Of a DNA stretch of 64,000 nucleotides, positions 4,444 through 52,030 are shown in pieces. Made by a program: the position numbers and the translations under genes. The DNA is taken from contig JBBPFI010000018.1 in NCBI GenBank assembly GCA_037974965.1, positions 558,001-622,000 of the forward strand. The letters are read 5' to 3'. Source of the stretch: Dacryopinax spathularia. Lineage: Eukaryota > Basidiomycota > Dacrymycetes > Dacrymycetales > Dacrymycetaceae. Every line of letters starts with the position of its first letter. Within the stretch, counting starts at the first letter, position 1. The notes beneath the pieces are model-generated. The model worked only from the letters and a program-made list of their open reading frames with translations. It searched no databases and had not been told where the DNA came from.

Positions 4444-5921
4444 GGGGTGTAGTACCTTTCATGGAGACTGCGCCGGATGTACGTGAGCAAGCCCACTCTG
4501 AGGAAAGGACGGATGTACTCGCGGTTTCTCGCCCTAGCTGGTCGTGCTTCGGATGTTGAGCTACCACCTAAGGGAGGAGCCTCGATTCTTGGGTTGACAG
4601 TGGATGTATGTTACAACTGTACTATAATACAGTGGCATGATGGATGCCAATCATAATGTTTCGGAGGAGCCTGACTTCAACCTAACATCATGTGTATCAG
4701 CTCGATATTTAACAGTTTGGAACTCCCCAAACTGCGCGCAGTCTCTGATTGACACACTCCACCGAGCGACTTACCCTCCCTTGCCGAGAGGAAGTCAGCT
4801 AGCCTGCTTTGAGGTAGGGAGTCTAGAGTAAGACGCGTATGATTATGCTAAAAGGTGCACGCAAAGCAATGCCGCCCCGCTAGCCTAGCGGTAACAGCGG
4901 CAGAGGGCTACTATATCCTGAGCCTGGGGTTACTCTATCGTGAACCCTTTTGTTCGATCCCGGCAGGCAGCTAATCTTTTTCAAATCTCTTTCGCTCGTG
5001 CAGGGGACGCCGGAGTTGCGCTTCGGGTCGTTCGGGTGGTCCATAAGGGGAGCGGGAAGATGTTGGAAGACTCTCGGAGGCTATGTCTCGTCGTCGGAGC
5101 CGACCGCCGAGCTCGCCCTGCTAACCAAGTCTCTCTTTCCTACGGAACTTTACCAACTTAATTACGACTTTCGGGTTATATTCTCACAATGGTCTAACGC
5201 CTCTACAAGTGTGCAAAAACTGCTAAGTTTTGTAAACTCAGTGGTGCCGTGGAGCGGAAGTGACGAGATGATGTTGGGGTAAGACATTGATTCCGCATCT
5301 TCCAACATCTTCCCGCTCCGCTTATGGACCACCCGAACGACCCGAAGCGCAACTCCGGCGTCCCCTGCACGAGCGAAAGAGATTTGAAAAAGATTAGCTG
5401 CCTGCCGGGCTCGAACAAAAGGGTTCACGATATAGTAACCCCAGGCTCAGGATATAGTAGCCCTCTGACGCTGTTACCGCCACACTAGCGGGGCGACATT
5501 ACTTTGCGCGCAACTTTTAGCATACACATAGCCATAATCACCGTCTCGCTGGCCCAATTTCCTATCAGTACAAACCGCATCCGAAATAAATAAATACATT
5601 GTGAGCTCATGACTCAGTGCGCCCAACTGGCAACTGCCGACTCATGGTCTTCGCCGATTATACAATACGAGGGGTTTGGAGGTCTCCTCCCTCACTCAAT
5701 CCTTTGAGCAGCACCAGCAGTTCAGCACCGGGCAGACTCGGACTCTGGCGGCACTTCTTCACCTGACAAAGTAGTCAAACGTCCAGGTATATCCGTATAT
5801 ATGAGGCATCGACTAGGATATTACAGTAAGAGTAAAGGGTAACGTAAGCTCGCGGGTATACTACGATGATTGCCAAAATTCCAGCGCGCGTTGCGCCGCT
5901 GATTTTGCCAGAATTGGGGTA
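4444..5921. other. Convergent intergenic region holding fold-back element A
   Basis: Lies between the stops of TFB3 and NIP100. Apart from the palindromic element at 4844-5524 it holds only the two 3' ends; 5525-5921 is somewhat AT-rich with no gene seen. Confidence 0.6.
4844..5524. repeat. tRNA-headed fold-back element, copy A
   Basis: A long inverted repeat: arm 4844-5070 pairs with arm 5298-5524 (about 227 bp each, over 90% alike by eye) around a 227-bp unique loop. Each arm carries a tRNA-like head starting GCCGCCCCGCTAG. In the left head TAGCCTAGCGG (4881-4891) fits the Pol III A box TRGYNNARYGG, and TGTTCGATCCC (about 4970-4980) is a 9/11 match to the B box. Past the heads the arms continue through the same roughly 110-bp body. 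The loop edges (CTCGGAGGCTATGTCTC and CGGAATCAATGTCTTA) recur in copy B at 37.8-39.3 kb, so this is a family and not a chance palindrome. It has no coding capacity; the ORFs on both strands here mirror each other. No target-site duplication could be fixed. Confidence 0.75.
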
Positions 5922-25496: not shown

Positions 25497-26059
25497 GGAG
25501 CGAATGACCCGGATGACCCCTTCGGCCCGCATAACTGACGCGGATGACCCCTTCACGGCGAATATGCCTCGGATGACCCCTCATAAGGGTCTTCAGAGCA
25601 AAGATAAGTGCATAACGGTCTCTCTTGCACGTAAAGGACACCTGTATATAATCAAAACAAGTATTTTCAGATAACCTAAAAATTAGTAGAAAGAGTCAAT
25701 ATGTTGTGCACAATATGACGTGGCTTGGAGCAAAGCATCTTCCTTATAAATGAGGCGTTAATAAGTCGAATATAAACTGTACATGCTAATAAAGGTTACA
25801 GAGTATTTGACTGGGTGTGCTAAATCTTACCTATGTTCTTTCTTGCCAATCTAATCTCGGGCAGAACTAGTTTTTTTTTTCAATTGCATGAGTATATAGG
25901 TGTGCTAAGAAAAACTGTACTTCGAAGAGCTAAAGCAAGAAACTACAAATCTAGTCGCACTTAAAGACCCTTATGAGGGGTCATCCGAGGCATATTCGCC
26001 GCGAAGGGTCATCCGAGGCAGTTATGCGGGCCGAAGGGGTCATCCGGGTCATTCGCTCC
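25497..26059. mobile_element. hAT-like MITE with ~97-bp terminal inverted repeats
   Basis: A 563-bp non-autonomous DNA element. The left end (25497-25593) and right end (25964-26059) are near-perfect inverted repeats starting GGAGCGAATGACCC, with one indel and a few substitutions. Each repeat holds several GGATGACCCC motifs, as expected of subterminal transposase sites. The outer ends are flanked by the direct repeat CCTTATTT (25489-25496 and 26060-26067), an 8-bp target duplication typical of the hAT superfamily. The interior is AT-rich, unlike the host, and has no ORF of note. Near-identity of the ends suggests a fairly recent insertion. It lies in the divergent promoter between RPC82 and the gene at 26176. 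Confidence 0.88.
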
Positions 26060-33000: not shown

Positions 33001-34705
33001 ATGGATCTCGCAACGGTGGAAATGTCAACCCTCGGGGAGCAGTCCCAGCCGTCGACTCCATCTGTGATGCGGGACTCATCTCCCGATGCAAGGCTGATCA
33101 CCTCCAATCTCCCTCCGGTGGATCGGGGTTGGGGAGCTTGGTCGTTCGTGGCCTGTTCTTTCGTCATGGAAACCATGATCTGGGGATTGTAAGTTGCTCT
33201 ACAGGCTTGCAAGCTCGATGCCGAACCACGTTTGTAGCGGATTCACTTTCGGGGTTTTCCAAAACTACTATATGTCATCTCCTGCATCCCCGTTCTACGG
33301 TTCCTCACCGACAGCGATTTCCGCCATCGGAACTGTCAGTTTAGGCGTACAATATGTCTTCGGCTTTGGAATCCTTGCCATTCAGAAAATGTATCCGCAG
33401 CATGTCAAGGCGATGCTCTGGATCGGACTAGCAGTTGCTTGCGCCTCCTTTGTCGTATCTAGCTTTGCGAACCAGGTACGTCGTCTGACCAAAGGAGCCC
33501 AGTGTCCGGCTGAGTCTCGTTAGATTTGGCAACTCGTTCTTCTCCAGGGTGTCATTCTCGGTGCCGCCGGCGGAGTACTCTACGGGCCCGCCCTTCTCTG
33601 GCTATCCGAATGGTTCGTCCAGCGCCGAGGACTAGCAGGCTCCCTCACTTTTTGCGGAAGTGGAGTCGGAGGAGCCCTCTTCCCTCCAGTTCTTGGCATG
33701 CTGCTCGAGAAGACCGGTTTCCGATGGACGCTCCGTATATGGGCGGCTGTGTTCGCTCTCTTCATGGGCCCTGCTATCTGGTTCATCAAGCCGCGTATCC
33801 CTCCTTCGAGCCATAGGGAGATCCGAATGGCCCCGATTGACTGGACCTTCTTCCAAAATCCTATCTTCATAGTTGTGTTCGTTACCGCGTTCATCCAAGC
33901 CATTGCATACTTCCCTGTAAGTCCAAGTTACATTGCTCGGTTCGCGTGCATATGACAGTCGTCCACAGGTCAGCCTGTATATACCAACCTATACCTCATC
34001 CCTCAAGCTTCAGCCCCTCGACTCGCAACTTGTCTTGTCTGCTTTCAACCTCTTCAGTGTCATTGGTTGGCTCCTCAGCATAACACTGCACACTCAGTGC
34101 TAATCATCGCCTAGGACAAATTGTCTTCGGATATCTCTGCGACAAAATTTCCTATTCCCGTGTAATTGTTGTGTCGGGTCTTGGTTCGGCGCTTGCTGCA
34201 TATGCACTTTGGGCTTACGCCTCAAGCTTGACACTGATCTTCCTGTTTGCCGTCATCTTCGGCAGTTTGGTACGACGATTCGCCAGCCTATTCCCACAAA
34301 TGCTAACATCGAAAAATAGGGCGGTGGGTTTTCATCCATAGAGCCACCAGCTGCGGCAGAGGTTGCTGGTGAGTCAGTGTTGTACCGGAGGGTGTATGAG
34401 GCTGAATCAGCCGCTGATGATTAGGATCAAACTCATTGTCGGCGGGAGTGATCGTCGGCTGCTTCGGCGCAGCCAAAGGTCTGGCGGCCGTCGTTGGACC
34501 ATCAATCGCCGGTTCACTCTACAATCCAGCGGACGCTGGCGTGCCAAGCCGATATGGTTTATTCGGCTTCGGCAAAGTTACTTTATTCGTCGGTAGCATG
34601 ATGATCGCTACCAGCATTGGAGGAGGGATATCATGGTTTGTGTCGCATGTGCGCCAGCGGCATTCGCGGAATTCGAATGATGGGCACAGTTTTGCCCAGT
34701 CATAA
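33001..34705 (+). CDS. MFS monocarboxylate-type transporter (copy 1)
   Basis: Seven exons (33001-33188, 33238-33475, 33524-33916, 33969-34065, 34115-34269, 34320-34368, 34425-34705) give 466 residues with 12 predicted helices. The MCT/MCH-type pattern is clear: the leader LPPVDRGWGAWSFVACSFV, then GFTFGVFQNYY, PALLWLSEWFVQRRGLAGSL, GFRWTLRIWA, a large central loop, IVFGYLCDKI, and helix 10-11 FGAAKGLAAVVGPSIAGSLYNP. In fungi this family includes riboflavin, monocarboxylate and mycotoxin-precursor carriers; no substrate is inferred. It is followed 0.9 kb downstream by a tandem paralogue on the same strand. Confidence 0.88.
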
Positions 34706-35603: not shown

Positions 35604-37393
35604 ATGAACGCTGCAGGCTTGGAATCTAGACACACGGACTTGGAGAAGGAAGAACTTGGGACCTCGACACCGTCTGCTCCTTCCGAATCACTCGATTACG
35701 GCTTACCTCCAGTCGACCGTGGGCGCCATGCCTGGACATTCCTTGTCGCATCGACCGCGCTGGAATGTACCATCTGGGGAATGGGTCTGGCTTTTGGTAT
35801 GTCTCATGAATCGTCCTGCTTTCCATATATTGATTCATGCAGGTACATACCAGAACTTTCTTACTGGTTCCCCCGACTCTCCAATTACCGATGGGTACAA
35901 CATAACCGCCGTTGCTGCCATTGGAGCTTCGTACCTAGCGATGCAGGTGAATAAGCGCCCGTGGCTTTCACGTGCATGGGCTGATTGGTTTTCGCAGTAT
36001 CTCCTGGGCTTCGCTATAATGCCCTTGTTGAGAAGATATCCACAACATATCCGCGCGGCACTTTTTGCATTCGTGGCGATTGAAACCGTATCTTTGATCG
36101 GCGCAAGCTTTGCTACCCGGGTATGAATTTCGCAGCACCTCAAAGGGCTGGGCTGATGGCAAAGTAATAGGCATGGCACCTCATTTTGCTACAAGGCATA
36201 ATACCCGGGACAGCAGGAGCTGTGTTCTACGGCCCTGCCCTTCTGTGGCTCTCCGAATGGTTCGTGGAGCGCCGCGGTCTTGCATGCGGCCTCATGTTCG
36301 GTGGCACGGTGCGTCGACCACGATGGTGGAGTTCCACTTCCATGGTAACTCACCACCTCCCAGGGTCTTGGCGGCGCGGCATTCCCTCCTCTAGTTGGTC
36401 TGCTGCTACAACGGCTTGGATTCCGATGGACGTTGCGCATTTGGGCGGCAACGTTTACCGTTGTGGTTGGCCTTTCCATGTACTTCATGCGACCTCGCCA
36501 CCCAGCAGCGCGCCTCCACGAGACTGGTGATCTGAAAATTGATTGGTCTCGCTTCACGAGTCCTGTCCTTGCTGTGGTCGTAAGTTCTATCCGTTTCATA
36601 CGTATCCGAACACACTTAACATCCCTCTCATAGTCTGCAACCGTCTTTATACAAGCACTTGGCTACTTCCCCATATCAATTTACATTCCAACGTATACCA
36701 CGTCTATCGGCAATGGTCTCCCTCCTATTGACGGGCAGCTGGTCCTCTCGGTATTCAACCTATTCACTCTGATCGGTAGGCTCAAGTTTGTGCTCTTTCG
36801 ACGCTCATCTGGCTCATTGGATCCTTCAGGTCAAGTCCTGCTCGGGTACTTGTGCGACAAGTTCTCCTTCTCCCTCGTCATCATCCTCGCTGGCGTGGGA
36901 TCGGCGATTTCCACATTCTTGCTCTGGGCCTTCTCGAGCAATCTGGGATTGACGTTTGCCTTCGTAGTGATCTTCGGAACATCGGTACGTTTTTCAGAAT
37001 TTCAAGCTAATAGGAGAACCAGGCTCTAAATGTCGCTCACAGGCTGGCGGCTTTTCGTCTATTTTCGCTCCTGTTGGTACCGCGGTGTTCGGTAAGCTCG
37101 TCTTCCGCGATTGGCTCTATGTCTGTTTAACGCGGTTGCCAGGCACGGATTCGCGCTCGGCAGGTGTCATTCCCGGTTACTTGGGGGCTTTACGGGGCGT
37201 TGCGGCCATTGTTGGACCGCTTATCTCCGCCAGGCTGTATAATCCCGATGAACCACCTCTCTCCGGCAATTACGGTCTATACGGGTTTGGACAGATGGAG
37301 ATCTTTGTCGGTGCTATGACTGCGGTGACTATCATCGGTGGGATAGCCTCCTGGATCCTGACTGCTATGGAGGAGCGGCGTACTTCGTCTTAG
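35604..37393 (+). CDS. MFS monocarboxylate-type transporter (copy 2)
   Basis: Nine exons (35604-35796, 35843-35946, 35998-36120, 36171-36308, 36364-36579, 36634-36775, 36830-36984, 37043-37091, 37143-37393) give 456 residues. Same layout as copy 1: LPPVDRGRHAWTFLVAS, GTYQNFLTGSP, PALLWLSEWFVERRGLACGL, GFRWTLRIWAATFTVVVGL, VLLGYLCDKFSFS and GALRGVAAIVGPLISARLYNP. Several introns sit at the same codons as in copy 1 and two are extra, so one copy gained or the other lost introns after the duplication. Sequence similarity is moderate, implying an old tandem duplication. All phases sum, so the gene appears intact; substrate unknown. Confidence 0.87.
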
Positions 37394-37846
37394 ATCACGA
37401 GGTCATCCGGCAGACGAGGAATGACGTGTAAAGTAGAATTAGATACCAGTAATCCCAATGCCGAATCCAAGAAAACGGCTCACTGCATGAGTATACATCA
37501 TGAATGGCACGTCCGGTTGTCTGAAATCCCAGATCGCTTCCGATATAAAACAGACTCCATCGAGTATTGTGGCAGGGCATCTCCGTCAAGACGTCCTTGC
37601 CTATTCTTGCCCAATTCCTGTGCGGGACTGATTGACGCAGAACATCTCGCCTTCGAAGGAAGTCCGTCGAAGGAGTTGAGCACAACACGTCGTCCGCCAG
37701 AAACCACCTGAGTTGCTCTCAGCTATGAGGTGCGAGCACTGCTGCACAAGTCAGACTGTGAAACATCACGCTGCTGGTTCCACTTACTTCGTGCTACAAC
37801 GCATTGAACTCCTCAAAGAGGCAAAGGGTTCAAGCTCTTGCCGGAT
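37394..37846. other. Intergenic left of fold-back B
   Basis: 453 bp of 3' flank of the second MFS gene. No gene or motif seen. Confidence 0.5.
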
Positions 37847-39261
37847 GCAACTGCGTATGTGTATGGTAAAAAGTGCACTGAAAGTAATGCCGCCCCGCTA
37901 ACCCAGCGGTAACAGTGGCAGAGGGCTACTATACCGTGAGCCTGGGGTTGCTATATCGCGAACCCTTTTGGTTTCGAGTCTGGCAGGCGACAAATAACAC
38001 TTTTGCGCCGCTTTAACGGGTGCGCAACAACTAGGGACGACCTCTCGCGACGCCGTGGCCGTGTCGGTTGAAGATGATTAACTGAGACATTCTGGGAGCA
38101 GTAGGTGTACGACTCGATATAATTACAGTGATAACAGGGTGAGTAAGAATAGAGCAATAGAACACAAAATCAAGGGCGGAGAGGAGGTAAAAGGGTAGTT
38201 GTAGCTTAGATTGCGCACACGAAATATTGCCGCCCCGCTAGTGTAGCGGTAGCAGCGGCAGAGGGTTACTATGTCGTGAACCCAGGGTGGCTATATCGCG
38301 CACCCCTTTTGGTGTTCGAGCCTGACAGTCGACTAAACTTTTCAAATCTTGTTTCTCAGTTGCAGCGCGCTCGGAGACGCGCTCCGGAGCAACAAAAGGA
38401 GGCCACGAGGTGACCGGGAAGACGTTGGAAGACGCGGAATCAATGTCTTAGTTTAAGCCTGTCCACCCACATACACAACTCTGAGCGAAGACATTGCGAC
38501 CCTCAAAGACTCGTTTTCTTCCAGAACCCACCTGCGTGTGAAGACCTCAGTCAAAGGGCTTGGACTTGTAAGCGCGGAAACCCGCTCACTGCAGAAGGGA
38601 AAGGAGACTGATGAGGAACGGAGAACCTCATCTCGGCTCCGAGACGGAGACATAGCCTCCGAGAGTCTTCCAAGGTCTTCCCGCTCACCTCGTGGCCTGC
38701 TTGTGTTGCTCCGAAGCGCGTCTCCGAGCGCGCTACAAACGAGAAAAAGAATTAAAAAGTTAAGTCGACTGTCAGGCTCGAACACAAAAAGGGGTGCGCG
38801 ATATAGCCACCCTGGGTTCACGATATAGTAACCCTCTGCCGCTGCTACCGCTACACTAGCGGGGCGGCAATATTTCGTGTGCGCAATCTAAGCTACAACT
38901 ACCCTTTTACCTCCTCTCCGCCCTTGATTTTGTGTTCTATTGCTCTATTCTTACTCACCCTGTTATCACTGTAATTATATCGAGTCGTACACCTACTGCT
39001 CCCACAATGTCTCACTTAATCATCTTCAACCGACTCACCTGATCCAACGGCCACGGCGTCGCGAGAGGTCGCCCATAGCTGGCGCGCACCCGTTAAAGCG
39101 GCACAAAAGTGTGATTTGTCGCCTGCCAGACTCGAACCAAAAGGGTTCGCGATATAGCAACCCCAGGCTCACGGTATAGTAGCCCTCTGCCGCTGTTACC
39201 GCTGGGTTAGCGGGGCAGCATTACTTTCAGTGCGCGTTTTACCATACACATACGCAGTTGC
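37847..39261. repeat. Nested tRNA-headed fold-back element, copy B
   Basis: A 1.4-kb palindrome: arm 37847-38433 pairs with arm 38665-39261 (about 590 bp each, close to 90% alike by eye) around a 231-bp loop. Each arm carries two tRNA-like heads in tandem, near 37890 and 38230 on the left and mirrored near 38870 and 39220 on the right. A-box matches: TAGTGTAGCGG (exact to TRGYNNARYGG) in the inner heads, TAACCCAGCGG in the outer ones. The right outer head has GGTTCGAGTCT, 10/11 to the Pol III B box. The inner arm and loop edges are shared with copy A (in opposite orientation). The outer half adds about 250 bp of unique arm body. No protein is encoded. It lies between convergent gene ends, as copy A does. 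Confidence 0.75.
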
Positions 39262-39528
39262 GTCCGAGAACCGCATCCATAGCACAGGCCGTGTGCTTTC
39301 TGCAGGGCCTGTTGCAGGGCTGCCACTCTATAGGCGGCTGCCGAGCCGAAAGGTAAAGGCACGGAACGTATGAAGTAGCTCACGTATTGCATTCCAGTCA
39401 CGCTCTTCCCTGCAGACACCCGCTTTGTAAGTACGACAAATGAAAATACCAAAATAAGCTAGATTGAAGGAACACGAAAGACAGCAAGTCCGAAACCTCA
39501 TGTTCTCAGCTCCCGAGACCTCGGCCAC

Positions 39529-46216: not shown

Positions 46217-47017
46217 ATGTCTGCCAACATCACCCAGACTCTTTCTTTTGGTGTGCACGAGGGTGCCGCTTTCAATGACGCTGTTGCTCGTACGTACTGT
46301 CTGCCTCCATTGCTCGGTCTTCACTCATGTGTCGCTCCATCGCAGTCGGTGGCTTCCCCAGCACCCAGAACATCAAGGCGATCAAGCAGATCCGCATTAT
46401 GGGCGGCTGGCTGGTCGACGGTTTTGTGCGTGCATGCTCTATGACAGCCCAGAGAATATACTTAATAGCGTCGGACTTGTGTAGGAGGTCACCTACCAGA
46501 TGAAGGACGGCTCTACCAAAGTCGCCAACCACCTCGGCACCGGCCAGCCCCACGCTACGATCACCTTCAACGGTGCGCTCCTTTCTCCACCTTCTGAGGC
46601 GCAGAGCATCTGACCGCAGTATGCAGACCACGAGGTCCTGATCGGCGTCACGGGCAAGACCACCCTGCCCAACTACTACCAGAACAAGCCCTACCTCAAC
46701 TACCTCAAGTTCGTGATCATGGACACGAAGACGGGCAACGTGCGCGTTGAGGGTACGTTTTCATTCTGATCTTTTGGACAGTTCCCTCCCTTCTCCTGCC
46801 CGCGCCCTTCCGTCCAGGGACGTTGGCTGATCAATCTGGTTCAGGTCCCTACGGCAATGGCGCCGGCGACAGCAAGTACACCGGCCAGACCTTCGCGGTT
46901 GCCGGTCCTATCGTCGCTTTTGCGGGCCAGGAGCACTCTGGAGGCGACCCGGTCAATGCACTTACGCTGTCGTTCATCAAGTCCGAGGCTCTGGCCCTCA
47001 ACAACAATCTGAACTAA
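46217..47017 (+). CDS. Jacalin-like lectin (copy 1)
   Basis: Five exons (46217-46289, 46346-46425, 46485-46572, 46627-46752, 46845-47017) give 179 residues, one jacalin-type beta-prism domain. Visible pattern: QTLSFGVHEGAAFND at the first strand, IKQIRIMGGWLVDGFEVTYQ, EVLIGVTGK, LNYLKFVIMDTKTG and the hallmark GPYGNG followed by VAGPIVAFAGQEHSGG. There is no signal peptide or membrane segment, so the product is probably cytosolic, like other fungal lectins thought to act in defence; the sugar is unknown. The paralogue at 49345 has every intron in the same place. The conserved TATA box suggests strong, perhaps stage-specific, expression. Confidence 0.85.
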
Positions 47018-47553
47018 ACCTGTAAGATGACTCTCCAGGTCCTACGTCAATGCATCAAGAAAATTGGTCATCAAGAATCCGAATTAGCCAAAGTCAGTTT
47101 TCTTCAGGATATAGTTGCATTCGTCTCTTGCTGTGCCGATCTTGTATGGCGTAGAGATAGTCAATTAGCACTATATCTTCTATTCTCCCCGTCCCGCCGA
47201 GCGTCCGCCGCCTGCCGCAAGACTCGGCACGAGTCTGTGCTTTGCTACGACGCGACAAGAGCATGGTAACGCCCGACAGCGCAGCCCTGCTACCTTTCCC
47301 TGAACCTTGACTGACGACGATACCGCCTTTCCATTTCTAGACGGTAAAGGACACGTGCCGAGGCTGGCCTGCTTATTGCACAGGTGCTCTCCTCGGAATT
47401 CCCGGCTCGCGGACCCACAGTTCTGAGAGCCTGCACTGAGTCGTCTTCACGCAGTTCAGGAACCATACTGCCTGCAAAATGGCAAGGAGACTCGTTGGAC
47501 AGTAGGGCCTGCAATAGTGTCATCTACTTGCTGGAGGGGACCACTCTGAGCAG

Positions 47554-47764
47554 TATAAATCCGGTGCTGGATGGTGTGGTTTCACTTTGTGCCTCAACCG
47601 CTGCCGAGATCGTGGATACTAGTACACTCAGTCACGAAACGTGCCGCCAAATCGTCCTATCATATCGTTTGCGATCGGCGGCACGTATCTTACGATCCGG
47701 TCTGCCCGTTCGCTATCTCCTTCATCAAGTCTGAAGAGCTTGCTGTCGGACACAACCTTCAGTA
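47554..47764 (+). pseudogene. Lectin gene relic
   Basis: A third lectin trace between lectin 1 and the carrier relic. TATAAAT at 47554-47560 resembles the lectin promoters. The stretch 47705-47764 encodes CPFAISFIKSEELAVGHNLQ and then a stop, like the lectin C-terminus (LSFIKSEALALNNNLN). The middle exons are missing, so it cannot make a lectin. Confidence 0.5.
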
Positions 47765-48184
47765 AACAGCTCAGGCCACGGAGGCGGGGACAAGCTTGTA
47801 TGTAGCAGCTGGATGTCTCCGGTACTAGTAGCTCCGAGTTGTCTCTGAGTCGTGTTCAGCACTGGTCAATCAACGGGCGGGATGTGCCTAACCTACATAA
47901 TATCCAGCTTCCCTCATGAGACCTCTCGAGCTGGCTTATCCATCTTCCTCTAGATGAGCACGAAAGAGCAACATGCTACCAGAGGGGGAGATTGGAAAGC
48001 GTTAATAGTAAGAGATTCAGATTGACGCCATGACCGTGGGCCCGGCGTCCGGACGCGGCCTTCGCGACGCGTCCCAATCGGCATCGTCATCCTTACAACC
48101 TACCCAACGTGCAGCCGCTACAGTCCAGTACAACACACATGCGATCATAGCGTCCTCCTTTTCTCATTTCTGGCTACAATCTGA

Positions 48185-48770
48185 AATGCCAACCCAGCAA
48201 TCATCCATTCATAACGTCCTTCGAACCGAACTACGATGGCTTTCAGCGACAGCGAGCGTCGACCGTAGCTAGTAGCAGCAAAGCCGGCTTTGGCGGAGCT
48301 CTACTGTAGCACGGACGACGGCGCGTGCCGCGGCGCTGTATTTCTCAAGCTTGACCTGTGAGCCTGTTCAGGCCGCACACAGGCGCGTTGCGTGGCATTG
48401 TTATCGGGAGACAAGGATTGGGCGGGAGGAAGAGGTACTGAGTACGTCGATGACGCTGAGGGGTTGGCGAGCAAGCAGGGTGCTACGTTGTCGGGCAGTT
48501 CCTAATCAACTTTTTCGCACTCAAGGCGTATGCTCCCTTTCCCCGCTCGGATGTCCTACTAGTGCTGACACGCAGGAGTGGTGGATCTTGCAACATCATT
48601 TCCTCCCTTCGCTAATCCCAAACACATTCCTCGGGACGCCGTCGCAATATAGTACCTCATCAAGCTCCATCCCCTTCTCGCACCGCATAGAACGCTCTGG
48701 CCGCTTTTACGGGTACGGGTGCCGGTGATCTGCATGGCATGATGGGCCCACCGCTGGATAATGTCCCTAT
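48185..48770 (+). pseudogene. Mitochondrial-carrier-like gene relic
   Basis: A decayed 5' part of a second copy of the gene at 50641-52030. It starts at an ATG equivalent to 50641 and can be followed through the GGCGGAGCT...GCGCTGTATTT region, the LRGLASKQG-equivalent stretch, the QHHFLP exon and the PLDNV motif near 48760, then stops. Early stop codons and small indels break the frame in several places, and the 3' two thirds are absent. It belongs to the first unit of the lectin/carrier tandem duplication. Confidence 0.8.
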
Positions 48771-49237
48771 TGCTTAACTTACGAGTCGATGTTACGTCAA
48801 CCCGCTTCGATCGCACCATATCCTTAATTCTCCGTGTTTGCTCTTCTCGACCGGCTCTGTCGTGCGCAAGGTCCGGTGGGCGCACTTCGAATCATGAGGA
48901 CGACGTTCTTCCTGGACTCACCGATCACACCTGCTTCTTGTCACTTGTTCGGCTCGGAGTCGGGTTTCTTGGTGCCCCGACATCCCTAAAGCCTTTGCGG
49001 TACGCAAAAGAAGTGGAACACATGACTGTACCAGGCGTCTCTACATCAATGGATCCCCTTCACAGGCGCGACGTGGCTTGGAGTTGAGCGAGTTCTGTAC
49101 CGGAATGATGAGCGGCTTCGCTTTCTCAGGGTACCGGAGCTGTTGGCCCATCACTGCCGGTTTTCGAATGATGTGATTGCTCCTGCGGCCTTCCATCTTC
49201 TACCCTCCGACTGGCCTTCGGCCGCCTTCCGCAGGCG

Positions 49238-49245
49238 TATAAATA
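49238..49245 (+). promoter_or_regulatory. TATA box of lectin 2
   Basis: GGCG-TATAAATA, 107 bp before the start, conserved with lectin 1. Confidence 0.6.
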
Positions 49246-49344
49246 TGAGGCTCTTTGCGCTCACTATGCTCGCCATCCAAAGCTCAAGTCTTCACTACTG
49301 GTCCTCACACAACTGCTCTTACTCTCCGCGAAATCTCAACCATC

Positions 49345-50120
49345 ATGGCTGCCAACCTCACTCAGACTCTTTCCTTCGGCGTGTACGAGGGTGGCCGTTT
49401 CAACGACGCTGAGGACAGTAAGTAAAGATAGTCCTATAGGCCTGGTGCGGATTTTGAAGCGCATTTCCCGCACAGTCGGTGGTTTCCCCAAAATCCAAAA
49501 TATTGCAGGCATCAAGCAGATCCGCCTCTCCGCGGCATGGCTGGTAGACGGTATCGTACGCTCCCTCCTTTTGAAAGGCAGGAGCACGAACCATGTCTTA
49601 CCTGTAAGACAGGAAATTACCTATCGATTGAAGGACGGTTTCACCACCGTTGCTAATCATCTCGGGAAGGCTCAGCCCAACGTGACCATCGCCTTCAGCG
49701 GTATGGCGGTTCATCGTTCTACGTTGAAAAGCACTCCTGATAGTTCCGCGACTAGACACTGAAGTCCTCATCGGCGTGACCGGCAAGACCGGTGTGCCCG
49801 GCTATTACAACAACAAACCCTACTTGAACTACCTCAGCTTCGTCATCTTGGACACCAAAACGGGCAAGGCGCGTGTTCAGGGTAGGATCTCATGCTCCCA
49901 TTTCAATGAGCCGAGTCGTTGACTGAAAAATCGTCGTTACGCAGGGCCCTACGGCAACGGCGGGGGAGACACCATATACACCGGTCAGCCGTTCTCCGTG
50001 GCTGGGCCTATCATCGCCTTCGCCGGCAAGCAAGCGACCGGAAGCGGCGATCCCAATAACGCTATCACCCTCTCTTTCATCAAGGCCGAGGCGCCGGCCG
50101 TTAGCGGCGACTTGAACTGA
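49345..50120 (+). CDS. Jacalin-like lectin (copy 2)
   Basis: Exons 49345-49417, 49476-49555, 49613-49700, 49756-49881 and 49945-50120 give 180 residues; exons 1-4 have exactly the same lengths as in lectin 1. Matching strands: QTLSFGVYEGGRFND, GIKQIRLSAAWLVDGIEITY, VLIGVTGKTGVPGYYNNKPYLN and GPYGNGGGD ... VAGPIIAFAGK. Roughly two thirds of residues agree with copy 1; the exposed loops (GTGQPH against GKAQPN) and the C-terminal tail differ most, which could mean different sugars. Both copies keep all reading frames, so both are probably in use. Cytosolic; no signal peptide. Confidence 0.85.
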
Positions 50121-50640
50121 ACTCGCCCGCGTCGTAACCGGCGAACCGCCTCCAAACCGTACTGGGAATGAACCAGGAAAGGTATCAAGATCTCTCCAAT
50201 GCTTCGGGTTATTACCTCGTAATGATGTAGTTGCTTGAACTATACTGCCGCACCGGCTCTCGTGTGCTGCGTTTTCAATCAGTTCCCGGAACGCAATGCG
50301 CCGGTTGCCAGTGACAGTATGCGCCTTCGCGCATCGGAGACCCGAGCAAAACTAAGGGGAGAGATCGACCACGAACGTTTATACTAGATGCATACTGGTG
50401 CGACTGTGAGTATACCGGGTGTTCACGCACGGATTGTTTTGCGAGCCAAAGCGGAGGTGGTGGTTGCAACAGCGGAGTGAGCGAGTCGGCGATATGACGC
50501 GTTCAGTCGGCCGGCGATATATCTGAAGAATACCGAGCGACCCTTACATTCGGCCTCCTTACTTAGTACATCCTTCATTGTACGTAGATGGTCCCATAGC
50601 AGCCCTTCCTCTCTCCGACTTGCTAGAACTATCTCACTGG

Positions 50641-52030
50641 ATGTCAACCAACAATGATACTTCCATAACATCATCTGATCCAAACTTCGATGGCTCTTCT
50701 CAGAAACAGTCAACACCGACAGCAGCCTCCACCCTAGCAAGTAGCAGCAACACGGGTTTTGGAGGCGCGTTAGCACGGACGACAGCTCGGGCCGCGGCGC
50801 TGTATTTCTCGAGGCCTGTGAGACTGTTCAGGCCTCAGAAAGGTGCGTTGCTCGAGTTATGGCGGCTGGGAGGTGGCAATGCTGATGAGGAGGAGGATAG
50901 TGAGTCCATGGACGACGTTGAGGGGGTTGGCGAGCAAGCAGGGTGCCACGTTGTCGCCCCAGTTCCTGATAAACATCTTTCGCACCCAAGGAGTACGTCA
51001 TCTCTCCTTCCCCCTTAATTCGAACTAGCAAAGCTGACGCAGTGAACAGTGGCAAATCTTCCAACATCATTTCCTCCCCCCCTTAATAGTCAACACCCTC
51101 CTCGGCACGCTCCTCTTCACGTCCTACACGACCTCGCAATACATCATCACCCTCCATCCGCTCCTCGCGCCGCATACGACGCTCTCCGCTGCTATGGCGG
51201 GCGCGTGTGCGGGGGCGGTGCATGGGATGGTCGGTGCGCCGCTGGATAATGTGGCTCGGTATTTGGAGAAGGGGGATACGAGCTGGCGGCAGGCTTGGGC
51301 CGAGGCGTTCCATGTTGGGCGGGACCCTCCTTCTCCTCCTCCAGCCGGTGCCAATACAGCAGCGCCATCCTCCTCCCAGGGACAGCCAACAGCGCCCCAG
51401 CTCATCCGAGAACTGAAAAAGCAAGACCTCTGGCCACCCCCAACGCTCTCCGAAGCCCGCGCAGCCAAGTCCTGGCTCTGGGAATGGCGCCACCTCGCGC
51501 ACCGAGGCTGGGCAGGGTGGAAATGGGGCTTGGGAAGGGACATAACAGGGTTCAGCATCTTCTTCTCCCTCTTTGACCTGAGCCGGAGGACTGCGAACTA
51601 CCTCGCGGTCCGGTTGACGCCGGAGGGCTGGGAGAGCCCGGATCGGGATGGGACTGGGGCGGGGAGGAGACCGGGGCTGGCGAGGGCTGCGCATGGGTTG
51701 ACGCTGGTTGGGGGAGGGGTTGTGGGGGGGTTGGCGTATGAGGGGTGTGCGAGGCCGTGGGAGGCGGCGAGGGCGTTGTGGGTCGCTAATAAGCTTCTGC
51801 CGGAAGGGGAGAGACGGACGCTCCCCCAGGTTCTAGTGAGGGGGCTGAGGGAGAATGGAGTCAGGTTTTTCTTTAGGAGTCCGGGGAAGGTTTTGGCTGG
51901 GAATGGAGGTGGTGGGGGAGGGGGAGGGGGGAGATGGTATTGGAGAGCGCTGACGACGTTGGGGAGGGTGGGGCCGTGGGGGGTCGCGTTCCTTGTTTGG
52001 GAGGGGATTGGGGGGACTGTCATTGGGTAG
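50641..52030 (+). CDS. Mitochondrial-carrier-like membrane protein
   Basis: Exons 50641-50842, 50901-50992 and 51050-52030 give 424 residues. After a Ser/Thr-rich N-terminus come RPVRLFRPQK-VSPWTTLRGLASKQG and IFRTQGWQIFQHHFLPPLIVNTLLGTLLFTSY, the layout of divergent fungal members of the mitochondrial carrier superfamily. AGACAGAVHGMVGAPLDNVARYLE fits the odd-helix P-x-D/E-x-x-(K/R) signature in the form PLDNVAR. The second repeat is interrupted by a Pro/Ala-rich insertion; GFSIFFSLFDLSRR and LVRGLRENGVRFFFRSP follow. Only one clean signature motif remains, so transport activity is uncertain. A Gly run near 50 residues from the end reflects a G-rich stretch. It is paired with the upstream lectin in a duplicated unit. 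Confidence 0.7.

What the first reader, a model, noticed from the sequence alone, without database searches (positions are those of the whole stretch)
4844..5524. Palindromic element with tRNA-like heads on both arms (copy A)
Seen: two 227-bp inverted arms, each opening with a module that has a good Pol III A box and a near B box, then a shared 110-bp body and a 227-bp loop. Established: SINEs have one tRNA head and no inverted arms, and fold-back DNA transposons have inverted arms but no Pol III promoters. The mix is unusual. Inference: this is a tRNA-headed fold-back family; Pol III transcripts from the two arms would face each other and could form a long hairpin.
Basis: partly seen in the sequence, partly recalled or inferred. 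Interest (0 to 1): 0.82.

Follow-up and report, generated by a model that had tools for sequence, protein, structure and literature searches.

The report
Palindromes carrying Pol III-type RNA heads
A eukaryotic, probably fungal, genome carries a small cluster of mirror-image DNA units, most holding two or four facing copies of what looks like an undescribed small-RNA gene; sequence evidence favours many short RNAs over one long hairpin, but no expression data were available.

Summary
The inverted repeat is real: 233-nt arms, 94% complementary, 227-nt loop. In the 29.2 Mb own genome (species not identified, probably a fungus) the head pattern matches 12 times at up to 3 mismatches, at 5 places: 11 heads in four inverted-repeat units within 66 kb of contig C18, and one single copy on C1. 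A 13th is degenerate. All 12 heads have an A box and a B box within one mismatch, a T4-T5 run right after hairpin 3 and a T4-T8 run after the B box. A common fold has three covarying pairs. Rfam gave no tRNA match to the units. The head therefore looks like a Pol III-type gene for an undescribed RNA of about 85-120 nt rather than a tRNA-derived SINE head. The T runs make a Pol III hairpin through the arms unlikely, and the two arms would give nearly the same sense RNA. Heads are 76-99% alike, often where bodies have diverged; in this unit one arm seems to have overwritten the other. No convincing target duplication was found. No transposase search was made, and expression was not testable.

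The parts
4834..5534 (.). Palindromic unit A (whole); collinear with unit U at C18:541027-541727, 86% over 711 aligned columns
4866..4981 (+). Head A5: A box, three hairpins, T4, B box, T5 run
5387..5502 (-). Head A3: same module on the other arm
5050..5070 (+). Conserved motif at the inner end of the left arm; also at C1 and, without a detected head, at C13 and C14
5298..5318 (-). Same motif at the inner end of the right arm
5071..5297 (+). Asymmetric loop; a DNA search found it again only in unit U (82%), while local alignment of whole units carries weaker similarity (65-69%) across it to T and B
37842..39266 (.). Palindromic unit B (nested, two heads per arm, four in all); collinear with unit T over 1038 columns at 77%
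37884..38004 (+). Head B5o (outer left)
38223..38342 (+). Head B5i (inner left)
38754..38874 (-). Head B3i (inner right)
39105..39224 (-). Head B3o (outer right)
38412..38432 (+). Inner-end motif of unit B, left (1 mismatch)
38666..38686 (-). Inner-end motif of unit B, right (1 mismatch)

Best explanation
The head is a Pol III-type gene for a small structured RNA outside the Rfam families scanned: about 85 nt if it ends at the T4 after hairpin 3, about 120 nt if it ends at the T4-T8 run after the B box. The genes sit as facing pairs (two or four per complete unit) in palindromic units that were copied as whole units, mostly within one 66-kb stretch. TFIIIC would bind the A and B boxes and Pol III would make nearly the same short RNA from each head. 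The palindrome's part is to keep copies alike by arm-to-arm gene conversion, not to make a long double-stranded RNA. Shown: the anatomy, the kept boxes and T runs, three covarying pairs, heads usually more conserved than bodies, a pattern that looks like one arm overwriting the other. Inferred: transcription, function of the RNA, and how the units spread.
For: 12 of 12 heads have an A box (0 mismatches in 9, 1 in 3), a B box (0 in 8, 1 in 4) and a T4-T8 run 2-20 nt after the B box; 12 of 12 have T4 or T5 directly after hairpin 3. In 140 kb of C18 the arrangement with perfect boxes is found 5 times, all heads; with one mismatch allowed in the B box 8 times, all heads; with one in each 17 times, 11 of them heads. 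The fold pairs 97.8% of 312 cells against 33-41% when slid, with 14 both-side-change cells against 5.3 +- 1.6 in shuffles. Over 20 copy pairs heads are 76-99% identical and bodies 29-100% (e.g. U5/T5o: head 94, body 36). In the body stretch compared, A5 and A3 are identical, A5/U5 94%, A3/U3 67%, and U3 is closest to T3i, 83%.
Against: No expression data. Only three pairs covary and they follow a few head types, so they may be few events; the number of pairs with both-side change is no higher than in shuffles (3 against 2.6; 311 of 500 reach it) and pair types are fewer than in shuffles. The structure was derived from these same sequences, so it beats the slid versions partly by construction. 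Single folds of 7 heads are not unusually stable (z -0.1 to -1.6). In A5/A3 the body (100%) is more alike than the head (92%). Outer and inner bodies may not be homologous, so their low identity is weak evidence for selection on the head. Conservation could come from conversion among heads. The inner-end motif shared with C13 and C14 is unexplained.
Confidence: 0.5

Rival explanations
1. A non-autonomous DNA transposon with long terminal inverted repeats (MITE or fold-back type) that has taken in a Pol III gene near its ends; the RNA is incidental and a transposase acting in trans moves the unit.
For: A and U are collinear over 711 columns and their alignment stops at the unit ends; B and T over 1038. 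In several pairs the 30 nt upstream of the head are shared too (A5/B5o 80%, U5/C1 70%), which a transcript starting near the A box would not carry, though other pairs share little there (A5/T3i 30%). The arms' inner ends differ in the same way in the four units.
Against: Only 5-mer target repeats in T, U and A, none in B, none at C1. 11 of 12 heads lie in 66 kb, whereas another inverted-repeat element of this genome (window 25497-26059) has arm matches on 7 contigs. Terminal sequences vary. A transposase was not searched for.
Confidence: 0.27
2. One reading: tRNA-headed fold-back element whose Pol III transcripts form a long hairpin feeding small RNAs.
For: Real inverted arms and Pol III boxes.
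Against: T4+ runs in 12 of 12 heads; both arms give nearly the same sense RNA; no tRNA match in Rfam scans of the units. Read-through or Pol II transcription could still make a hairpin.
Confidence: 0.08
3. SINEs: either pairs inserted tail to tail with the inner-end motif as a LINE-type 3' end, or the head alone as a mini-SINE whose T run is its tail.
For: The C1 copy is single; there the inner-end motif is 100% shared with A5 and U5 while the body is 41%; the motif recurs without a detected head at C13 and C14. Heads of different surroundings stay alike (U5/T5o head 94, body 36). Fungal SINEs described in PMC5063351 (passages read) end in an oligo-T tract.
Against: T4+ runs separate head from body; no A- or T-rich tail after the motif at C1 by eye; no target duplication at C1 by the scan used; some upstream sequence is shared between copies; 4 of 5 places are pairs with a shared asymmetry of the inner ends, which argues against independent pairings.
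Confidence: 0.08
4. TFIIIC-bound chromatin boundary or clustering sites, like the B-box inverted repeats that flank the silent mating-type region of fission yeast.
For: Inverted repeats with several B boxes, clustered in one 66-kb stretch; PMC2040200 (passages read) describes inverted repeats with several B boxes whose barrier activity needs TFIIIC.
Against: Those barriers are said there not to associate with Pol III, whereas here A box, T runs and an RNA fold are kept as well. The neighbourhood holds ordinary genes: of 10 nearby ORFs scanned, 5 matched Pfam (mannitol dehydrogenase, F-box-like, DEAD helicase, methyltransferase, MFS transporter) and 5 did not.
Confidence: 0.07

Closest known systems
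Type 2 Pol III genes (tRNA genes; also yeast U6, whose B box lies downstream of its terminator; recalled)
   Same: A box, B box, T-run end, short structured RNA; if the T4 before the B box ends the RNA, the layout resembles U6
   Different: No tRNA match by Rfam; three hairpins, two of them with the loop TATATC; genes sit in palindromes
Helenus / TRIMp3 elements (PMC10886601, passages read)
   Same: Short mobile elements, also in fungi, with a tRNA-derived Pol III-type promoter in each terminal repeat
   Different: Those repeats are direct LTRs, conserved around the boxes, with predicted folds that do not support tRNA function; here the repeats are inverted and most of the head is conserved
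Fungal tRNA-related SINEs (AfuSINE2, PMC5063351, passages read)
   Same: A and B boxes followed by a tRNA-unrelated region; low copy number
   Different: AfuSINE2 have 4-14 bp target duplications and a tRNA-related 5' region; here no convincing duplication, no tRNA match, and heads are mostly paired
MITE / fold-back DNA transposons (recalled; one such inverted-repeat element is in this window)
   Same: Long inverted arms, defined unit ends
   Different: Clustered rather than dispersed, no convincing target duplication, a Pol III-type gene in each arm
Fission yeast mating-type inverted repeats with B boxes (PMC2040200, passages read)
   Same: Inverted repeats carrying B boxes
   Different: Those are said not to associate with Pol III and they flank a silent region

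Membership tests
SINE | Head derived from tRNA, 5S or 7SL RNA | tested here: not met
   No tRNA, 5S or 7SL match at E up to 10 for unit A or for loci covering T, U, B and C1; only the box motifs match
SINE | Internal Pol III promoter | tested here: met
   A and B boxes within 1 mismatch in 12 of 12 heads
SINE | Transcript runs through the body to a tail (no terminator in between) | tested here: not met
   T4-T8 run after the B box in 12 of 12; would not apply if the head alone is the SINE
SINE | Target-site duplication | tested here: inconclusive
   None at C1 by the scan used, but 143 of 200 random placements give a 6-bp pair, so the scan has little power
TIR / fold-back transposon | Long inverted arms in most copies | tested here: met
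   4 of 5 places with full heads; T lacks its right outer arm, C1 is single
TIR / fold-back transposon | Target-site duplication | tested here: inconclusive
   5-mers only in T, U, A and none in B; no control was run and 2-4 bp duplications could not be judged
TIR / fold-back transposon | Transposase recognising the ends | not tested
   No search for an autonomous partner was made
Type 2 Pol III RNA gene | A box, B box, T-run terminator | tested here: met
   12 of 12, each box within 1 mismatch
Type 2 Pol III RNA gene | Transcription by Pol III | not testable with these tools
   No RNA or ChIP data
TFIIIC boundary inverted repeats | TFIIIC bound without Pol III at a silent/active border | not testable with these tools
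   No chromatin data
TRIMp3 / Helenus | Pol III-like sequence inside direct long terminal repeats | tested here: not met
   The arms are inverted

The most novel reading that the evidence does not exclude
An undescribed Pol III RNA family that persists or multiplies as palindromic twin and quadruple genes in one chromosomal territory, with arm-to-arm conversion keeping the RNA intact while much of what lies between decays; possibly a selfish RNA-gene element.
Probability: 0.3. Interest if true: 0.7.

Novelty: new variant of a known kind. Interest (0 to 1): 0.5.

Why it matters
If the head RNA is made, it is a Pol III RNA outside the Rfam families scanned here, and the palindromes would be a small natural case of gene conversion preserving paired RNA genes. 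It also shows that inverted Pol III-type heads need not mean a long hairpin RNA: conserved T runs point to short transcripts.

Tried and rejected
tRNA origin: Rfam at gathering scores on the window, Rfam at E up to 10 on the units, ARAGORN and a head profile against 30 of the 54 tRNA matches gave no tRNA; the best tRNA-locus hit, E 5.4, lies over the 3' part of a tRNA-Val gene and covers the head's B-box part. ARAGORN with its threshold lowered reports 457 and 906 sites in 140 kb and is uninformative. The four sub-threshold Rfam hits (two of them the same mir-483 place inside unit U) are taken as chance. Target duplications: 5-mers only, no control; at C1 none, while 143 of 200 random placements of a similar scan give a 6-bp exact pair. 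Unusual stability of single folds: not found in 7 heads. C14 and C13: the motif is there, no head by profile at E up to 10, and the Rfam hits there are sub-threshold. Paper searches, judged by title and start of abstract, listed no element of this design; they cover open-licence full text only.

Full report
What is there. The window is C18:558001-622000 of a 29.2 Mb, 24-contig genome. Window 4838-5070 and 5298-5530 are inverted arms of 233 nt, 94% complementary, with 227 nt between. A search with the arm gave 13 matching stretches; a head pattern allowing 3 mismatches gave 12 heads, against 0 for the reversed-pattern control. They form unit T (C18 531.2-532.25 kb, three heads, right outer arm missing), U (541.03-541.73 kb, two), A (the finding, two), B (window 37842-39266, four) and a single copy on C1 at 366.66 kb. 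A pattern for the two tandem hairpins gave 11 hits, control 0; all 11 are among the 12 heads (A5 is the one missed). A head profile adds one degenerate head at C18:542497-542603 (E 3e-13 in the sequence scanned). The tool scores only the best candidates, so diverged copies may be missed.

What the head is. The twelve aligned heads (A1) share an A box, three hairpins, a T4 or T5 run, a B box and a T4-T8 run. The box consensus strings are recalled. A box: 0 mismatches in 9 of 12, 1 in 3; B box: 0 in 8, 1 in 4. In C1 the matching B box lies 86 nt from the A box instead of 71-75, with the T run 2 nt on. In 140 kb of C18, both strands, the A+B+T arrangement with perfect boxes occurs 5 times, all heads; with one mismatch in the B box 8 times, all heads; with one in each 17 times, 11 of them heads. 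On the structure as I wrote it, 97.8% of 312 cells pair against 33-41% when slid, and 14 cells change on both sides against 5.3 +- 1.6 shuffled. Against this, pairs with a both-side change are 3 against 2.6 in shuffles, pair types are fewer than in shuffles, and the structure was derived from these same sequences. One pair in hairpin 2 and two in hairpin 3 covary. This supports a kept fold from few events. Single folds of 7 heads are near their shuffles. Rfam gives no match at E up to 10 in unit A and 4 sub-threshold hits, none a tRNA, in 7 loci covering T, U, B and the C1 copy.

Why a long hairpin is unlikely. Both arms are read inward and, being inverted copies, would give nearly the same sense RNA (A5/A3 heads 92% alike). 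T4+ runs lie right after hairpin 3 (12 of 12) and again after the B box (12 of 12), before the roughly 100-bp body. A Pol III hairpin would need read-through of both, the body and the loop. Which run ends the RNA cannot be told here; if the first, the B box lies beyond the end, as recalled for yeast U6.

How the units evolved. A and U align over 711 columns at 86%, and this alignment stops at the unit ends; B and T align over 1038 columns at 77%. By eye on the alignments, the inner ends of the two arms differ in the same way in all four units, A and U in one orientation, T and B in the other; I infer that the palindrome was made once and copied. Over 20 listed copy pairs the head is 76-99% alike and the body 29-100%; the head is the more alike in most, but not in A5/A3 (head 92, body 100), and outer and inner bodies may not be homologous. 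In the body stretch, A5 and A3 are identical, A5/U5 94%, A3/U3 67%, and U3 is nearest T3i at 83%. The simplest reading is that U3 keeps the older form and A3 was overwritten by A5 after A and U parted; conversion into U3 from a T-like copy is the alternative.

The inner-end motif. GAGCGGGAAGAYGTTGGAAGA marks the loop side of the arms. It recurs with 0 mismatches on C14 and 1 on C13; the search gave 59 hits at up to 3 mismatches against 15 for the reversed control, so I take only those with 0 or 1 mismatch as real. A longer form was found at 6 places, C13 included, control 0. Neither the C13 nor the C14 site has a head by profile. Its role is open: a LINE-type tail, a binding site, or a unit end.

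Surroundings. Of 10 ORFs near the units scanned in Pfam, 5 matched (mannitol dehydrogenase, F-box-like, DEAD helicase, methyltransferase, MFS transporter) and 5 did not. Another inverted-repeat element in the same window (25497-26059) has 19 arm matches on 7 contigs, a contrast to the clustering here.

Verdict. The best reading is a clustered family of Pol III-type RNA genes in partly homogenised palindromes, at about even odds, with a Pol III-gene-bearing DNA transposon as the main rival.

Noticed in passing
window 25497-26059: Another short inverted-repeat element (arms 96-98% complementary); 19 arm matches on 7 contigs, nine inverted pairs and one single.
   Followed up: partly
L016 2497-2603 (C18:542497-542603): A degenerate thirteenth head standing alone; by eye hairpin 1 is recognisable and no T4 run follows its B-box-like stretch.
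   Followed up: partly
G000 C7 1.02-1.13 Mb and C20: A repeat with AAGCAGGAAGACGTTGGAATA (3 mismatches from the inner-end motif), 11 hits, four inverted pairs about 2.1-2.4 kb apart on C7; may be a TIR transposon.
   Followed up: no
L073 and L074 (C14:674.36 kb, C13:486.0 kb): The inner-end motif without a detected head; at C13 the match to unit T runs to about 49 columns.
   Followed up: partly
window 46336-51252: Several stretches 71-91% alike about 2.5-3.1 kb apart, suggesting a tandem gene duplication.
   Followed up: no
window 33527-33647 and 36174-36294: A 121-nt direct repeat, 74% alike.
   Followed up: no
G000 C19 and C23: Dense, duplicated tRNA clusters that look like organelle (mitochondrial) sequence.
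   Followed up: no
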